Below the pieces are notes generated by a model. It searched no databases, was not told the DNA's origin, and worked only from the letters and a program-made list of their open reading frames with translations. Positions 5,004 to 21,106 of a DNA stretch of 39,625 bases are shown piece after piece; position 1 is the first letter of the stretch; each line of letters opens with the position of its first letter. A program made the translations under genes and the position numbers. The stretch is from an uncultured Bacteroidia bacterium (GTDB taxonomy: Bacteria; Bacteroidota; Bacteroidia; Bacteroidales; UBA932), in NCBI GenBank assembly GCA_902801205.1, contig CADCHE010000017.1, forward strand, positions 1 to 39,625, written 5' to 3'.

Positions 5004-5411
5004 TCAGGATTCCGCACCGGTCCAACGCGCGAAGAACTGTGCCGCCGCAGCGATGAGCGCCGGCCCCAATCCGCAGTAGAAGGAAGCGAAGAACGCCGTC
5101 GGAACCCCCGGAATGAACTTCAGGCTGATTCCGAGACACATCATGAAGATGACCAGGATCCACCCGCGCAACGGCAGGAAGGCCAGGATCCGGTCGGAAT
5201 ACTTCCGGACGATCCTGTTGAACATCCAGACGAAGCCGATGAGTACCAGAACGGAACCCACCGCAAGCCATACGATGCGTTTCGAAGGCCACAGTGCCAG
5301 GTACGACTGGATGCCGGTCACAAGGACTTTGATGCCCGGGGCGCCCCAGACAATGGCGTTGGCCAGCAGCAGATGCCGTTTGGCGACAGGCAGGATCTTG
5401 TCAATGTACAT
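5004..5411 (-). CDS. Small four-helix membrane protein, unknown function
   Basis: The protein has 135 residues, and I do not recognise a named family. Four hydrophobic segments are visible at about residues 14-35, 45-66, 78-98 and 103-126. The first loop is short and Lys/Arg residues lie in KRHLLL, PSKR and RKYSDR, suggesting an N-in topology. The sequence ends in a polar FARWTGAES. It is probably an inner-membrane protein. The ATG at 5411 is preceded by a TATCTTTG box at 5444-5451, and the GNAT gene follows after 14 bases. Nothing indicates transport or catalysis. Confidence 0.7.
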   Translation of the reverse strand: MYIDKILPVAKRHLLLANAIVWGAPGIKVLVTGIQSYLALWPSKRIVWLAVGSVLVLIGFVWMFNRIVRKYSDRILAFLPLRGWILVIFMMCLGISLKFIPGVPTAFFASFYCGLGPALIAAAAQFFARWTGAES

Positions 5412-5443
5412 ATCGATTCTTGAATGAAAGGATTGTAAATGTC

Positions 5444-5451
5444 CAAAGATA
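5444..5451 (-). promoter_or_regulatory. -7 promoter box (TATCTTTG) for the membrane protein-GNAT unit
   Basis: TATCTTTG on the minus strand lies 32 bases before the ATG at 5411. It sits back-to-back with plus-strand promoter boxes at 5475 and 5524, forming a divergent promoter region of under 100 bases. Confidence 0.6.
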
Positions 5452-5474
5452 AGTTATTTCTTGCAAACCCCCTT

Positions 5475-5531
5475 TATCTTTGCCGCAGAACCGTACGCGC
5501 TTTTCTTTCCGGCAAAGAATTCCTATCTTTG
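5475..5531 (+). promoter_or_regulatory. Two tandem -7 boxes (5475-5482 and 5524-5531) ahead of nnrD
   Basis: Two perfect TATCTTTG boxes lie 49 bases apart on the plus strand. The second is preceded by a TTTTCTTT stretch (5501-5508) at about the -33 distance. Transcripts would have leaders of about 120 and 70 bases before the ATG at 5606. These are longer than for most genes here. Confidence 0.55.
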
Positions 5532-5542
5532 ACGGGTTGCTG

Positions 5543-5576
5543 CGGGTGTGCCCGGACGGCATTGACGTCGCACCCG
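5543..5576 (+). other. Stem-loop in the 5' leader of nnrD
   Basis: CGGGTGTG (5543-5550) pairs with CGCACCCG (5569-5576) as an 8-bp stem with one G-U pair and an 18-base loop. It begins 12 bases after the second promoter box, so it would be near the 5' end of the mRNA. It could stabilise the transcript or control expression. It does not match any riboswitch class I can recognise. Confidence 0.35.
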
Positions 5577-8730: not shown

Positions 8731-9288
8731 ATGAGGAAACGACTGACCGTATTTCTGATGATGATCCTTGCAGCACAGGCGGTGAAGGCGCAGGTCGACA
8801 TGCACTGCCACATGATTCCGGCCTCATACCTGGAGGCCGTGAAAACACACGGGATGGAGATGGACGAAGGATTCCCCATCCCCTCCTGGGACGCGGCCGC
8901 GCACCTGGCGTTCATGGACGAGGCCGGTATCCGCACCTCCGTCCTGACGATGCCGGCCCCGCAGCCGTATTTCGGCGACGCGGCGGAATCGGCCGCCGTC
9001 TGCCGGACGTTCAACGAAGAGGCCGCAGCCCTGAAAGCCCTTTACCCGGGCCGCTTCCGCTTCTGCGCCGCCCTGCCCCTCCCGGACGTGGGGAAAGCCC
9101 TGGAAGAGGCCCGCTACGCCTTGGAAGTCCTGGGCGCCGACGGGGTCAAAATGGCGACCAACAGTTACGGACAATACCTCGGCGACGAAGCACTCGACCC
9201 GCTGATGGCGTACCTGAACGAGCGGAAAGCCGTCATCATCACCCATCCGCTGGTGATGGCCACACTGAGTAAAACCGCGATACGATGA
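8731..9288 (+). CDS. Secreted amidohydrolase (ACMSD-like), truncated at the C terminus
   Basis: The protein has 185 residues; the amidohydrolase-2 family is usually about 300 or more. A signal peptide (MRKRLTVFLMMILAAQAVKA) leads into VDMHCHMIPASYL, which holds the HxH metal site. The family continues normally through AAHLAFMDEAGIRTSVLTMP, FCAALPLPDVGKALEEA and LGADGVKMATNSYGQYLGD, up to AVIITHP. There the family match stops, and the frame ends after an unrelated LVMATLSKTAIR. The second half, with the later metal-binding His and the catalytic Asp, is missing. The TGA overlaps the ATG of the next gene by four bases (ATGA). This is probably a remnant after an internal deletion, and is unlikely to be active. 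Confidence 0.78.
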   Translation: MRKRLTVFLMMILAAQAVKAQVDMHCHMIPASYLEAVKTHGMEMDEGFPIPSWDAAAHLAFMDEAGIRTSVLTMPAPQPYFGDAAESAAVCRTFNEEAAALKALYPGRFRFCAALPLPDVGKALEEARYALEVLGADGVKMATNSYGQYLGDEALDPLMAYLNERKAVIITHPLVMATLSKTAIR

Positions 9289-10404: not shown

Positions 10405-10818
10405 ATGCTGAAAAAGCTGCTGACCGCGCTTCTCGTCCTGTGCCCCCTGTTCTTCGGAACCGGGGCGCAGGCGCAGCGCATCACCGATTCCTCGTACCGG
10501 ACCATCGGTCACATCAAGAGCGACGGCACCATCCAGGACGGATCCTACCGGATTGTCGGCCACATCAAAAGCGACGGTACCGTACAGGACGCTTCCTACC
10601 GCATCGTCGGCCATATCAAGAGCGACGGCACGGTCCAGGACGGCTCCTACCGCATCATCGGCCATATCAAGCGCGACGGGACGGTCCAGGACAGCTCGTA
10701 CCGCATCATCGGACACATCAAAGACGACGGCACGGTCCAGGACAGTTCCTATCGTATCATCGGCCATGCGGACGACATCCCGAAGGAATGGGCCGCCTGG
10801 TATTTTTTCTTCTTCTGA
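10405..10818 (+). CDS. 5-fold beta-flower repeat protein
   Basis: The protein has 137 residues. A signal peptide of about 24 residues ends at GAQAQ. Residues 28-112 are five exact 17-residue repeats of the form D-x-S-Y-R-x-I-G-H-I-K-x-D-G-T-V-Q, and a sixth partial copy spans 113-122. The end EWAAWYFFFF is the aromatic tail seen in Bacteroidota proteins annotated as 5-fold beta-flower. Each repeat probably forms a short beta hairpin arranged radially. It is predicted to be exported to the periplasm or surface. No function is known. The gene lies 16 bases after the CMD-cupin gene and 4 bases before the exonuclease gene. A second repeat protein with a different period is encoded at 12005-12490. 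Confidence 0.85.
   Translation: MLKKLLTALLVLCPLFFGTGAQAQRITDSSYRTIGHIKSDGTIQDGSYRIVGHIKSDGTVQDASYRIVGHIKSDGTVQDGSYRIIGHIKRDGTVQDSSYRIIGHIKDDGTVQDSSYRIIGHADDIPKEWAAWYFFFF
10486..10770 (+). repeat. Coding tandem repeat, 51-bp unit
   Basis: Five full 51-base units and one partial unit encode the 17-residue repeats of the beta-flower protein. Units are similar but not identical at the DNA level (GGCCACATCAAAAGCGACGG is a typical core). Differences are mostly at third codon positions, which points to selection on the protein sequence and not to recent slippage. Confidence 0.85.
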
Positions 10819-10822
10819 CAAG

Positions 10823-11317
10823 ATGAAGGATTTCGCGGCGATTGACTTCGAAACGGCGAACGAATGCCCCTCCAGCGTCTGCAGCGTCGGAGTGGTCGTC
10901 GTCCGGGACGGCGAAGTCGCTGATTCCTTCTACAGCTTGATCCATCCGGAACCGGAGTATTACCAGTGGTTCTGCCGCCAGGTACACGGGCTGGGGCCGG
11001 AGGACACGGAGGACGCTCCGGTCTTTCCCCGCGTGTGGGAGAAGATTGCGCCGCGGATCGAAGGGCTCCCCCTTGTGGCGCACAACAGCCGCTTCGACGA
11101 AGGTTGCCTCAAAGCCGTCTTCCAGGTGTACCGGATGGACTATCCCGACTACAAGTTCTACGACACCCTGGCCGCTTCACGCCGCCATTTCAGGAAAACG
11201 CTTCCCAACCACCAGCTGCAGACCGTCGCCGCCGCCTGCGGATACGACCTCACCCGGCACCACCATGCCCTGGCCGACGCGGAAGCCTGCGCCCGCATCG
11301 CCCTGCAGTTGCTATGA
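10823..11317 (+). CDS. 3'-5' exonuclease, DnaQ/DEDDh family
   Basis: The protein has 164 residues, a single exonuclease domain. ExoI is FAAIDFETANECPSSVCSVG with the catalytic Asp and Glu. ExoII is GLPLVAHNSRFDEGCLKAVF with the second Asp. ExoIII is HHHALADAEACARIALQLL with the His and last Asp, so the DEDDh set is complete. The RQVHGLGPEDTEDAP segment is typical of stand-alone DNA polymerase III epsilon-like nucleases. It hydrolyses DNA or RNA 3' ends in the cytosol; the precise role (proofreading, repair or RNA trimming) is unclear. ATG at 10823 is 4 bases after the beta-flower stop. A strong bidirectional terminator follows at 11325. Confidence 0.9.
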   Translation: MKDFAAIDFETANECPSSVCSVGVVVVRDGEVADSFYSLIHPEPEYYQWFCRQVHGLGPEDTEDAPVFPRVWEKIAPRIEGLPLVAHNSRFDEGCLKAVFQVYRMDYPDYKFYDTLAASRRHFRKTLPNHQLQTVAAACGYDLTRHHHALADAEACARIALQLL

Positions 11318-11324
11318 AACAAAA

Positions 11325-11349
11325 AAAGTGCAGCCTGAAGCTGCACTTT
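11325..11349. terminator. Bidirectional intrinsic terminator
   Basis: A perfect 10-bp inverted repeat, AAAGTGCAGC and GCTGCACTTT with a 5-base loop, lies between the convergent exonuclease (+) and Hsp20 (-) genes. A run of A precedes it on the plus strand, which gives a T tail for minus-strand transcripts. Plus-strand transcripts end in CTTTCC. Confidence 0.85.
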
Positions 11350-11373
11350 CCATCCCCCCCACGGGGTTCTGTT

Positions 11374-11811
11374 TTACTGAATCTCTATCTGGCGGACCGC
11401 CTTCTGGACTTCCTCAGGCGCGATCTTCGGAATACGTACATTCAGCACGCCGTTCTCGACCTTCGCCTCGATCTTGTCCGCTTCGGCATCGTCGGGCAGC
11501 GAAAGCATCTGCTGGAATTTCTCATAGGAGAACTCCCGGCGCAGGTAGCGTCCGTTATGCTTCTTCTCATTCTTCTCATGGTTCTCGGCCTTCTTTTCCA
11601 TGTTGATGACCAGGTTGCCGCCTTCGTCCACATGGACCTGGAAGTCATCCTTGGTGAGCCCGGGGGCAGCCAGTTCGACTTCGTATTCCTTTTCGTTTTC
11701 GATGACATTGATGGCCGGGGCCGTATAATTTGTTCTTTCCATCCAGTTGTTGTCGAAGAGATCATTGAAGATGTCAGGCAACCAGCTTTGCGTTCTTCTA
11801 ACAGGTAACAT
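11374..11811 (-). CDS. Hsp20/alpha-crystallin small heat shock protein
   Basis: The protein has 145 residues. The start MLPVRRTQSWLPDIFNDLFD is the standard N terminus of Bacteroidota Hsp20 proteins and decides the start at 11811; upstream codons are not family-like. The alpha-crystallin domain spans about residues 37-135: PAINVIENEKEYEVELAAPG, KDDFQVHVDEGGNLVI, RREFSYEKFQQMLSLP and the classic NGVLNVRIPK motif. It is an ATP-independent holdase that binds unfolding proteins in the cytosol as an oligomer. It sits alone between the bidirectional terminator and a secreted repeat protein. There is a 193-base gap upstream in which no clear TAnnTTTG box is seen. Confidence 0.94.
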   Translation of the reverse strand: MLPVRRTQSWLPDIFNDLFDNNWMERTNYTAPAINVIENEKEYEVELAAPGLTKDDFQVHVDEGGNLVINMEKKAENHEKNEKKHNGRYLRREFSYEKFQQMLSLPDDAEADKIEAKVENGVLNVRIPKIAPEEVQKAVRQIEIQ

Positions 11812-11932
11812 AACAAAAACAATTTTAATCTTCACCGGCATCCGGTCCTTACGTGGCCTTCCGTCCGGGTTCCTCAGCGGAACATCTCAGGAAAAGGCAA
11901 ACGGCAGGCCAAGACCGGGAAACCGGAAAGAT

Positions 11933-11951
11933 TGACACGCACGGCGTGACA
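11933..11951. promoter_or_regulatory. Near-palindrome upstream of Hsp20
   Basis: TGACACGC-ACG-GCGTGACA is an inverted repeat with one mismatch, in the 193-base gap between the Hsp20 start and the end of the next minus-strand gene. It could be an operator for Hsp20 or a hairpin after the repeat-protein gene. No T run follows. It does not match the CIRCE sequence. Confidence 0.3.
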
Positions 11952-12004
11952 GAAAGTCTTTTTCCGGTGCCAAAATGGCCGCTTGGGAAGACACGCAGGA
12001 GGCG

Positions 12005-12490
12005 TCAGCGGACGGAGAGGAAGGCGTACCACACCGCGACCAACTCCTCGAGCGTCAGGTAGCCGTCAATGGTGAACAACACATCGCGCTGGAAGGCCGA
12101 TGTCCCTTCATAGACCCGTCCGTCGCGGATTGTCGCAACGGCATCCCGCGTGAACGAAGACGTGCCCTTGTAGATCCTGCTGTCACGCACGGTATAGAGG
12201 ATATCGCTGGTGAAGGAGGAGGTTCCCTCATAGACCTTCCGGTCCCGGACGGTGCAGACGACGTCGCTCCGGAAGGGAGATGTCCCTTTGCGGACCTGAT
12301 CCGCCCGGACGGTAAAGAGGATGTCGCTGGTAAAGGAAGACGTCCCCTTGTAGACCTTGCCGTCCCGGACGGTGCAGAGGACGTCGGTCATGAAGCGGCT
12401 CGTCCCCCTGTAGACACGCACACCGTCCCCACCCGCCTTCAGGACGAAGGGCAGCGACAGCAGAAGCAGGACGGAAAGGAACGCTTTCAT
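12005..12490 (-). CDS. Secreted protein with six 20-residue repeats
   Basis: The protein has 161 residues. A signal peptide covers about residues 1-19 (MKAFLSVLLLLSLPFVLKA). Six repeats of exactly 20 residues start at positions 26, 46, 66, 86, 106 and 126, with the form V-Y-x-G-T-S-x-F-x-x-D-I-L-x-T-V-R-D-G-K. Each is likely a pair of short beta strands. The C-terminal LEELVAVWYAFL is aromatic, like the EWAAWYFFFF end of the beta-flower protein 1.2 kb away. I do not recognise a named family; it may be a six-fold relative of the beta-flower fold. The start at 12490 is chosen for its signal peptide. The promoter box ends only 5 bases before it, so the mRNA may be leaderless. It is a single-gene unit on the minus strand. 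Confidence 0.75.
   Translation of the reverse strand: MKAFLSVLLLLSLPFVLKAGGDGVRVYRGTSRFMTDVLCTVRDGKVYKGTSSFTSDILFTVRADQVRKGTSPFRSDVVCTVRDRKVYEGTSSFTSDILYTVRDSRIYKGTSSFTRDAVATIRDGRVYEGTSAFQRDVLFTIDGYLTLEELVAVWYAFLSVR
12068..12415 (-). repeat. Coding tandem repeat, 60-bp unit
   Basis: Six 60-base units encode the 20-residue repeats. Shared DNA cores such as GGTACCTCC-type codons vary at synonymous sites, so the repeats are old and kept by selection on the protein. The period differs from the 51-bp repeat at 10486-10770, and the two repeat sequences are not alignable at the DNA level. Confidence 0.8.
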
Positions 12491-12495
12491 ACTGC

Positions 12496-12527
12496 CAAAG
12501 GTATGAAATTCCGTCCGATATAGCAAA
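12496..12527 (-). promoter_or_regulatory. Complete -33/-7 promoter for the 20-residue repeat protein
   Basis: On the minus strand TTTG (12524-12527), 20 bases, then TACCTTTG (12496-12503) match the Bacteroidota consensus in sequence and spacing. The start codon at 12490 is 5 bases from the box, so transcription should begin at or next to the ATG. Confidence 0.6.
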
Positions 12528-19897: not shown

Positions 19898-21055
19898 ATG
19901 ATAATCAGACACGAAACCCCCGAAGACTACCGCGCAGCCGAGCAGCTGACCCGCGAGGCTTTCTGGAACGTATACCGCCCCGGATGCACGGAACATTACG
20001 TGCTGCACCGCTACCGCGAGAACCCCGATTTCATCCCCGAACTCGATTTCGTCCTGGAAGAGAACGGCCGCCTGATCGGCCACGTGATGTTCTCCAAGGC
20101 CGAACTGGTGCTGGACGACGGCACCCGGAAGCCCTCCTGGACGTTCGGTCCCATCGGCATCCATCCGGCGTTCAAGCGAAAGGGATATGGGCTCAAGCTG
20201 CTGAACTTCGCGCTGGACAAGGCCCGCGAAATGGGGGTGGGATTCCTTTGTATGGAAGGGGACATCGCGTTTTACAAGCACGCCGGGTTCCGGCTGGCCA
20301 GCGAATTCAACATCCGATATCACGGCATGCCGCCCGGCGAAGAAGTCCCCTTCTTCCTGGCACAGGAACTCATTCCGGGCTGGCTGCAGGCCAACGGGAT
20401 CGAGGAAGCGACCTACTGCCCGCCGGAAGGGTATTTCGTGGCGGATGCGGATCCGGACGCCTTCGAGCGGTTCGAGGCTTCCTTCCCGCCGAAGGAAAAG
20501 CTGCGTCTTCCGGGGCAGCTGACCTACGACGGCGTGATGGAGACGGGCCGGATCGTCCTGCGTCCCTGGCGCGACAACGACGCCCCCGTCCTCTTCAAGT
20601 GGGCTTCGGATCCCGACATCGGCTCCCGTGCCGGCTGGCCGCCGCACCGGTCGGTCGAGGAGAGCCTGGAGGTTATCCGGACGGTCTTCCGCGACGCGAC
20701 GTATACCTGGGCGGTCGAACTGAAGGAGACGGGAGAAGCCATCGGCGCCATGGGGTACGGCCCTTCGTGCGACTGCGACCTGCCGGCGCGCGAAGGCGAA
20801 CCGATCGTCGGCTACTGGATCGCCAAGCCCTACTGGAACCGGGGCCTCTGCACGGAGGCGCTCGGGCTGTTGCTGGAGCACATCCGTGTCACGACCGGCG
20901 TGAAGTCGCTCATCGGCGGCCATTTCGTGGACAATCCCGCCAGCGGCCGCGTGATGGAGAAGTGCGGCTTCGTCCCCACCGGCGAGACCGTCGTCGACGA
21001 GGCGATGTACTTGGGCAAAGACCACCCGATCCGCGTCCTCCGGAAGGAAATGTAG
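19898..21055 (+). CDS. Fusion of two GNAT acetyltransferase domains
   Basis: The protein has 385 residues from this start. The N-terminal domain (about 1-170) is YhbS-like: IIRHETPEDYRAAEQLTREAFW, WTFGPIGIHPAFKRKGYGLKLL with the acetyl-CoA loop, and DIAFYKHAGFRLASEF. The C-terminal domain (about 210-385) is RimJ/RimL-like: TGRIVLRPWRDNDAPVLFKWASDPDI, VGYWIAKPYWNRGLCTEAL as the CoA loop, and NPASGRVMEKCGFVPTGET. Both halves keep their CoA signatures, so both may be active. The fusion is unusual but the frame is clean, with no stop or shift. ATG 19898 is preferred over an upstream start at 19877 because it begins the first strand and follows the promoter box. Confidence 0.88.
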   Translation: MIIRHETPEDYRAAEQLTREAFWNVYRPGCTEHYVLHRYRENPDFIPELDFVLEENGRLIGHVMFSKAELVLDDGTRKPSWTFGPIGIHPAFKRKGYGLKLLNFALDKAREMGVGFLCMEGDIAFYKHAGFRLASEFNIRYHGMPPGEEVPFFLAQELIPGWLQANGIEEATYCPPEGYFVADADPDAFERFEASFPPKEKLRLPGQLTYDGVMETGRIVLRPWRDNDAPVLFKWASDPDIGSRAGWPPHRSVEESLEVIRTVFRDATYTWAVELKETGEAIGAMGYGPSCDCDLPAREGEPIVGYWIAKPYWNRGLCTEALGLLLEHIRVTTGVKSLIGGHFVDNPASGRVMEKCGFVPTGETVVDEAMYLGKDHPIRVLRKEM

Positions 21056-21106
21056 GGAGAAAACTGCAAAAAGTAGGGTGAAAACGTGGGAAATGTAGGG
21101 AGAAAA
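21052..21106 (+). repeat. Three phased GTAGGG direct repeats upstream of fic
   Basis: GTAGGGAGAAAA occurs at 21052-21063, GTAGGGTGAAAA at 21073-21084 and GTAGGGAGAAAA again at 21095-21106. Spacing is 21 and 22 bases, about two turns of the helix, so all would face the same side of the DNA. The first copy includes the stop codon of the GNAT gene. The last ends 4 bases before the fic -7 box. The arrangement looks like an operator array. Confidence 0.7.

What the first reader, a model, noticed from the sequence alone, without database searches (positions are those of the whole stretch)
10405..12490. Two different secreted short-repeat beta proteins in one neighbourhood, possibly five-fold and six-fold variants of one architecture
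The plus-strand gene at 10405 has five exact 17-residue repeats plus a partial sixth. The minus-strand gene at 12005 has six exact 20-residue repeats of a different sequence. Both have signal peptides, no linker between repeats, a D-x-x-x-x-T-V-like strand in each unit, and an acidic then aromatic end (EWAAWYFFFF and LEELVAVWYAFL). The first matches proteins named 5-fold beta-flower. The second I cannot assign. The shared layout suggests a family of radially closed repeat proteins in which repeat number and length vary. That is inference; only the periods, signals and tails are seen directly.
Basis: partly seen in the sequence, partly recalled or inferred. Interest (0 to 1): 0.72.

Follow-up and report, generated by a model that had tools for sequence, protein, structure and literature searches.

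The report
Two known flower-shaped secreted repeat proteins
The two genes encode small secreted proteins of already named families whose repeats are thought to close into a five- or six-petalled flower; being close together here means little, but comparing relatives shows that the same positions in all repeats of one protein tend to change together, which hints at what the petals are for.

Summary
The plus-strand protein matches Pfam PF21785, '5-fold beta-flower protein' (E 8.9e-33). The minus-strand protein it could not assign matches PF21786, '6-fold beta flower protein' (E 1.7e-37, whole model). Both were described in 2023 (Durairaj et al., PMC10584680; passages read). An AlphaFold2 model of the 6-fold protein (63 sequences, pLDDT 90.7) has six beta hairpins and a C-terminal helix; its best solved relative is 1zxu, E 6e-4, TM 0.42. 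The 5-fold model failed (pLDDT 49). Closeness of the genes is not conserved: 0 of 80 relatives of the 6-fold gene carry a 5-fold gene in the fetched flank; five other genomes with both hold them on different contigs. Beyond the question: in both families certain positions (in the 6-fold model, the long loops) change together in all repeats, while some hydrophobic positions stay unit-specific. One relative with seven repeats carries what looks like the trace of unequal crossing-over. Most likely: rigid exported flowers whose like petals form one symmetric contact surface. Ligand unknown. Ordinary as a find; the petal pattern is worth following.

The parts
10405..10818 (+). Gene of an exported 137-aa 5-fold beta-flower protein (Pfam PF21785 Bflower_2)
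   Evidence: ORF; Pfam 112.9 bits against cut-off 38
10405..10473 (+). Hydrophobic N-terminal signal sequence, residues 1-23 (boundary A23/Q24 by eye)
   Evidence: sequence; no signal predictor run
10507..10761 (+). Five full 17-residue units (register beginning at G35), with part units before and after
   Evidence: the phase is a choice
10786..10815 (+). C-terminal acidic/aromatic tail EWAAWYFFFF (residues 128-137); helix only in a low-confidence model
   Evidence: sequence
12005..12490 (-). Gene of an exported 161-aa 6-fold beta flower protein (Pfam PF21786 Bflower_3)
   Evidence: ORF; Pfam 128.6 bits against cut-off 34
12428..12490 (-). Hydrophobic N-terminal signal sequence, about residues 1-21
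   Evidence: sequence; low-confidence N-terminal helix in the model
12056..12415 (-). Six 20-residue units (residues 26-145), each strand, long loop (petal), strand
12011..12052 (-). C-terminal hydrophobic helix, residues 147-160
   Evidence: AlphaFold2 model, mean pLDDT 96 for residues 151-160
12496..12527 (-). Match to the Bacteroidota-type promoter pattern TTTG-N20-TAnnTTTG ending 5 nt before the ATG of the 6-fold gene (pattern recalled)
   Evidence: 3 matches in the window, 0.08 expected; not enriched upstream of relatives (2 of 79)

Best explanation
Both genes encode small exported proteins of the beta-flower families, one with five and one with six beta hairpins set radially around a short C-terminal hydrophobic helix. 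[Shown: family membership of both; hairpins and helix in a confident model of the 6-fold protein. Inferred: closed ring and helix at the axis, from the published description of the families and from a unit-specific strand position. Inferred for the 5-fold protein: the whole fold.] The barrel interior is fixed unit by unit, because each hairpin meets a different side of an unsymmetric helix. The long loops (petals) on one rim are kept alike in the units of a protein and switch together between lineages. [The statistics are shown; that the concerted positions of the 6-fold protein are its loops is read from the secondary structure of one model, and is assumed for the 5-fold protein.] The most likely working is that the ring of like petals is a rotationally symmetric contact surface that binds a repeated ligand (glycan, lipid headgroup or envelope polymer) in the periplasm or on the cell surface. 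[Inferred; no ligand or partner was found.] Recombination between units supplies at least part of the changes. The two genes work independently; their closeness here is accidental.
For: Pfam (63 of 63 members of A3 match PF21786). Model of the 6-fold protein: pLDDT 90.7, pTM 0.82, twelve strands in six hairpins (24-142) and helix 147-160. Best solved structure 1zxu, E 6.1e-4, probability 1.00, TM 0.42, the one hit of 168 below 1e-3; the 2023 paper shows 1zxu for the Tubby/scramblase resemblance. Repeat number: 78 of 80 relatives have six units (77 by script, L151 added by eye). 6-fold loop positions 4, 6, 7, 8, 9 are more alike within a protein than in any of 1000 shuffles (46 non-redundant proteins; position 7: 0.978, shuffle maximum 0.877); position 13 is unit-specific, by unit C, C, Y, M/F, A, F. 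5-fold family: positions 1, 3, 4, 7 and 9-15 above all shuffles, hydrophobic positions 2, 8, 16 not (23 non-redundant of 42 usable of 70 loci). Whole-set switches: Tyr/Phe at position 7 at least 3 changes, Ser/Gly/Ala at position 9 at least 4, on a tree built without the loop columns. Trace of unequal crossing-over in L160.
Against: No ligand, partner or conserved neighbour was found. Concerted loops could come from recombination alone. Model coordinates were not at hand, so ring closure, helix position and the facing of side chains were not measured. The 5-fold model failed, and the 5-fold sequence also resembles solved cell-wall-binding repeat proteins (4cnl E 1.1e-8; 2wwc E 1.3e-4 with profile A2), so an open repeat arrangement is not excluded for it. 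TM 0.42 to 1zxu is weak. The semiconserved [DNEQ]xxG motif named in the 2023 paper is absent from both window proteins (0 matches; 83 of 210 5-fold and 32 of 474 6-fold units hold it, window included). The tree is poorly resolved (35 of 62 inner branches open). The shuffles ignore kinship.
Confidence: 0.5

Rival explanations
1. Same proteins and fold, but the petals are alike only because recombination between units homogenises the DNA; the loops have no shared binding function and the protein is a structural or unknown envelope part.
For: Codon identity at equal residues is above expectation from other positions of the same gene (6-fold 0.436 against 0.379 over all positions, loops 0.424 against 0.354, strands 0.450 against 0.400; 5-fold position 9 0.73 against 0.22). 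Congeners L068 and L072 differ by a short block changed in every unit, with GGA AAA in all six of L072. L160 carries a chimeric extra unit.
Against: In L149 and L154 the all-Gly state is carried by differing codons and beside both Ser codon families, so residue identity outlasts DNA identity. 5-fold positions 1, 3, 10 and 13 are concerted with little or no codon excess. Position 13 of the 6-fold units in the same arrays stays unit-specific.
Confidence: 0.3
2. Works like Tubby C-terminal domains or scramblases: the hydrophobic C-terminal helix and aromatic residues engage a membrane, and the flower binds or moves phospholipid.
For: 1zxu as the only solved relative below 1e-3; resemblance, clan CL0395 and membrane association of lipoprotein forms proposed in Durairaj et al. 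2023; very aromatic tails.
Against: Fold resemblance only (TM 0.42); 0 of 78 checked 6-fold relatives show a lipobox-like motif in the N-terminal part examined (four rows were cut at a late Met), though L049 of another sample looks like a lipoprotein by eye; unit-specific position 13 fits a helix packed inside better than one free for a membrane (inference).
Confidence: 0.12
3. The two genes form a functional pair or a flower cassette.
For: About 1.2 kb apart in a 2.47 Mb genome. In the order sample 6 of 295 genomes have both over cut-off, 1.6 expected, hypergeometric p 0.002.
Against: Three of those six genomes are one genus and a fourth is the window's own; in the five others the genes lie on different contigs. 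Family sample: both only in the window's own genome (1 of 149, 0.5 expected). Phylum sample: 1 of 395 over cut-off (0.3 expected); G523 adds a second at E below 0.001 but under both cut-offs. 0 of 80 relatives have a 5-fold gene in the fetched flank. Opposite strands, two unrelated genes between.
Confidence: 0.03

Closest known systems
5-fold beta-flower protein, Pfam PF21785 (Bflower_2)
   Same: Match over the curated cut-off along nearly the whole model (1-111 of 112), 17-residue period, hydrophobic N-terminus, aromatic tail shared with relatives
   Different: Nothing essential found; the [DNEQ]xxG motif is absent in this copy
6-fold beta flower protein, Pfam PF21786 (Bflower_3)
   Same: Whole-model match over the curated cut-off; six hairpins and C-terminal helix
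   Different: Phe in place of Tyr in all six petals, as in 3 of 46 non-redundant proteins counting the window; Cys at position 13 in units 1 and 3, where most have it in units 1 (43 of 46) and 2 (34 of 46)
Tubby C-terminal domain and related plant protein 1zxu (clan CL0395)
   Same: Twelve-stranded barrel around a hydrophobic helix, according to the 2023 paper; Foldseek hit E 6e-4
   Different: No sequence match in solved structures; according to the paper a circular permutation, and strands and loops are shorter in beta-flowers
Beta-propellers with amplified or concertedly evolving blades (PMC6805158; Podospora hnwd genes, PMC2873952; abstracts read)
   Same: Ring of repeats whose units are amplified or recombine; in hnwd the repeats control recognition specificity
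   Different: Other fold, other lineage; no recognition role is known to me for beta-flowers

Membership tests
PF21785 5-fold beta-flower | Profile match over the curated cut-off | tested here: met
   112.9 bits, cut-off 38, profile 1-111 of 112
PF21785 5-fold beta-flower | Ten strands in five hairpins closing into a barrel | tested here: inconclusive
   single-sequence AlphaFold2 model pLDDT 49.1, pTM 0.29
PF21785 5-fold beta-flower | C-terminal hydrophobic helix (many members) | tested here: inconclusive
   aromatic tail present; helix 127-136 only in the low-confidence model
PF21786 6-fold beta flower | Profile match over the curated cut-off | tested here: met
   128.6 bits, cut-off 34, profile 1-125 of 125
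PF21786 6-fold beta flower | Twelve strands in six hairpins | tested here: met
   model with pLDDT 90.7, pTM 0.82
PF21786 6-fold beta flower | Closed barrel enclosing the C-terminal helix | tested here: inconclusive
   helix 147-160 predicted; coordinates not at hand, closure and enclosure not measured
beta-flower clan (both families) | Semiconserved [DNEQ]xxG motif at the hairpin tip | tested here: not met
   0 matches in either window protein; 83 of 210 and 32 of 474 units in the sets examined. The authors call it semiconserved, so not disqualifying
Tubby C-terminal domain superfamily | Fold similarity to a solved member | tested here: inconclusive
   1zxu E 6.1e-4, probability 1.00 but TM 0.42
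Tubby C-terminal domain superfamily | Phosphoinositide binding or scrambling | not testable with these tools
   needs an assay

The most novel reading that the evidence does not exclude
Beta-flowers evolve by two rules in one chain: the petals are spread among units by unequal recombination and switch as a whole set (all Tyr or all Phe, all Ser or all Gly), while positions facing the helix stay unit-specific. The petals would then be a tunable ring surface with five-, six- and possibly seven-fold versions (L160) that recognises a symmetric or repeated ligand.
Probability: 0.35. Interest if true: 0.6.

Novelty: new member of a known kind. Interest (0 to 1): 0.36.

Why it matters
As genes they are ordinary members of two described families of unknown function. 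The comparison of relatives gives a handle on that function: loop positions that change as a set, beside a strand position that stays unit-specific, point to the petal rim as the working face and say which substitutions to test. The L158/L160 pair shows, in near-identical DNA, how a symmetric repeat protein may gain a unit.

Tried and rejected
Functional pairing of the two genes: tested by genome surveys and flanks, rejected. Guilt by association: around 80 6-fold loci the largest neighbour clusters held 9, 8, 8, 7 and 7 loci, mostly recurring groups of similar loci by eye. Around 52 of the 5-fold loci (1.5 kb flanks, shorter at contig ends) the second largest cluster (30 loci) was antisense or out-of-frame shadows of the flower gene (members read); the clusters of 12, 10 and 10 looked the same from the one member shown of each; the rest of the 16 listed held at most 4 loci. 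Phage origin: no relative in viral contigs, nothing below E 0.001 among viral structures. Homology of the 5-fold protein to cell-wall-binding repeats (4cnl, 38.4 bits): the curated beta-flower model scores much better (112.9 bits), so I did not file it there, but it stays as a caution. Promoter as a conserved feature of 6-fold genes: 2 of 79 relatives, reverse-strand control 4 of 79, random windows 4 of 790: rejected. The first register script for the 5-fold units put some proteins one unit late; one search replaces it. Rows dropped: 28 of 70 5-fold loci for lack of a clean 5 x 17 register; 2 of 81 6-fold proteins; redundant rows.

Full report
What is there. The window (contig C17 of a 2.47 Mb genome in 22 contigs) holds a 137-aa gene at 10405-10818 (+) and a 161-aa gene at 12005-12490 (-). 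Repeat periods are 51 and 60 nt. The units are similar, not identical: mean residue identity 85% between the five full 17-residue units and 60% between the six 20-residue units over 16 positions. Each has a hydrophobic N-terminus and an acidic-aromatic tail. A search of the own genome with each protein found one match, itself.

What they are. Pfam names both: PF21785 '5-fold beta-flower protein', E 8.9e-33, and PF21786 '6-fold beta flower protein', E 1.7e-37, each over its curated cut-off; NCBIfam has no match near a cut-off. In the library searched, four papers name the beta-flower fold; I read passages of each. A snail venom transcriptome paper reports 'Beta flower 3' domain hits in short uncharacterised transcripts (PMC11359391, passages); 'Alpha-Beta flower' in the CATH paper is an architecture of another class; a sixth listed paper concerns sugar beet (listing only).

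Structure. With 63 sequences (the window protein and 62 of the 80 loci) AlphaFold2 gave pLDDT 90.7 and pTM 0.82 for the 6-fold protein: strands in six hairpins from 24 to 142 and a helix 147-160. Foldseek against solved structures gave one hit of 168 below 1e-3, 1zxu (E 6.1e-4, probability 1.00, TM 0.42); viral models gave none. The 5-fold protein was folded without an alignment, because none of its relatives came from the sources allowed for that tool, and failed (pLDDT 49.1). Profiles of the two families align only at the signal-peptide region, so common ancestry rests on the published fold argument.

Neighbourhood. Family sample, 149 genomes: PF21786 in 3, PF21785 in 26, both only in the window's own. 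Order sample, 295 genomes, over cut-off: 22 and 21, both in 6 against 1.6 expected (hypergeometric p 0.002), but three of the six are one genus and the five besides the window's have the two on different contigs. Phylum sample, 395: 7 and 15 over cut-off, both in 1; one more genome (G523) has sub-cut-off matches to both. Of 116 relatives of the 6-fold gene in genome contigs 80 were kept, and 0 of 80 hold a 5-fold gene within the fetched flank (up to 5 kb a side, less at contig ends) by a profile that finds the window's own; its one other hit was the 6-fold protein of L149 itself (17.9 bits). Between the two genes lie an exonuclease and an Hsp20 gene; of 31 genomes in the genus sample 16 besides the window's have a match to both, never on one contig (the exonuclease match is weak or partial in four, G831, G838, G850, G855). 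So the closeness is local to this genome or assembly.

Two rules of change. In 46 non-redundant 6-fold proteins (of 79 with a clean register, of 81) loop positions 4, 6, 7, 8 and 9 of the unit are more alike within a protein than in any of 1000 shuffles across proteins: 0.565 (shuffle maximum 0.435), 0.470 (0.358), 0.978 (0.877), 0.699 (0.523), 0.874 (0.699). Positions 2 and 14 exceed their maxima slightly (0.586 against 0.577; 0.446 against 0.436), and position 10 equals its maximum to three decimals. Position 13, in the second strand, is unit-specific: identity within a protein 0.12, between proteins at the same unit 0.59, with Cys, Cys, Tyr, Met/Phe, Ala, Phe by unit. In the 5-fold family (23 non-redundant of 42 usable of 70 loci) positions 1, 3, 4, 7 and 9-15 exceed all shuffles, while hydrophobic positions 2, 8 and 16 are more alike between proteins at the same unit than within a protein; which of these are loops is not shown, for want of a model. 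On a tree built without the loop columns the Tyr/Phe state of position 7 (at least five of six units agreeing; Phe in 3 of 65 proteins, Tyr in 62) needs at least 3 changes and the Ser/Gly/Ala state of position 9 at least 4, though 35 of 62 inner branches are open. The shuffles ignore kinship; position 13 and the hydrophobic positions of the same proteins serve as internal control. The 80 loci were fetched by short peptide patterns, which favours common loop sequences in at least one unit.

How petals change together. Codon evidence is mixed. Equal residues at equal positions share codons more than expected from the same gene (6-fold 0.436 against 0.379), strongly at some 5-fold positions (9: 0.73 against 0.22) and little or not at others (1, 3, 10, 13). 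In congeners L068 and L072 a short stretch differs in every unit, T-I-G-H against M-I-G-K (S and C in place of T and M in the first unit), with GGA AAA in all six units of L072. In L149 and L154 the all-Gly state is carried by different codons and beside both Ser codon families. The clearest trace is L160: seven units, the extra one reading as unit 4 of its near relative L158 (upstream identity 0.95) in its first part and, but for its last base, as unit 3 in its second, joined within a stretch that both units share, as unequal crossing-over would leave it. It may also be an assembly chimera. 78 of 80 relatives have six units (77 by script, L151 by eye); L160 has seven and L162 a broken frame.

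Reading. Members of known families, confidence 0.95. Six-hairpin fold with C-terminal helix for the 6-fold protein, 0.85 including closure, which I did not measure. Petal ring as a symmetric contact surface, about 0.4. I searched for print on concerted change in beta-flowers once (10 of 29,530 papers listed, titles and starts of abstracts seen, none on beta-flowers); that is thin, so I say of the pattern only that I have not met it in print.

Noticed in passing
L160 (DFGI01000096.1), 5037-5549, against L158: Seven-unit relative of the 6-fold protein; the extra unit is a chimera of two neighbouring units. The three base differences from L158 in the six shared units all change a residue, and one more residue differs in the signal peptide.
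   Followed up: partly
L043, L045, L054 (one genus, g99): 6-fold-type genes with six, five and two units in congeners, counted by eye, so unit number varies.
   Followed up: no
L143, L151, L152, L161: 6-fold proteins whose open frame begins directly before the first unit, without a hydrophobic N-terminus; perhaps cytoplasmic versions.
   Followed up: partly
L033, 1486-2499 (-): A 338-aa protein with a 5-fold beta-flower at its C-terminal end behind an unassigned N-terminal region.
   Followed up: no
L049, 1369-2145 (+): Lipoprotein-like 259-aa protein with, by eye, two different short-repeat arrays in a row.
   Followed up: no
12496-12527 (-): Promoter-pattern match ending 5 nt before the ATG of the 6-fold gene, which would leave almost no leader.
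   Followed up: partly
8731-9288 (+): Amidohydrolase ORF that matches only the first half of PF04909 (1-144 of 289), perhaps truncated.
   Followed up: no
21046-21106: A third tandem repeat, period 22, 2.9 copies.
   Followed up: no
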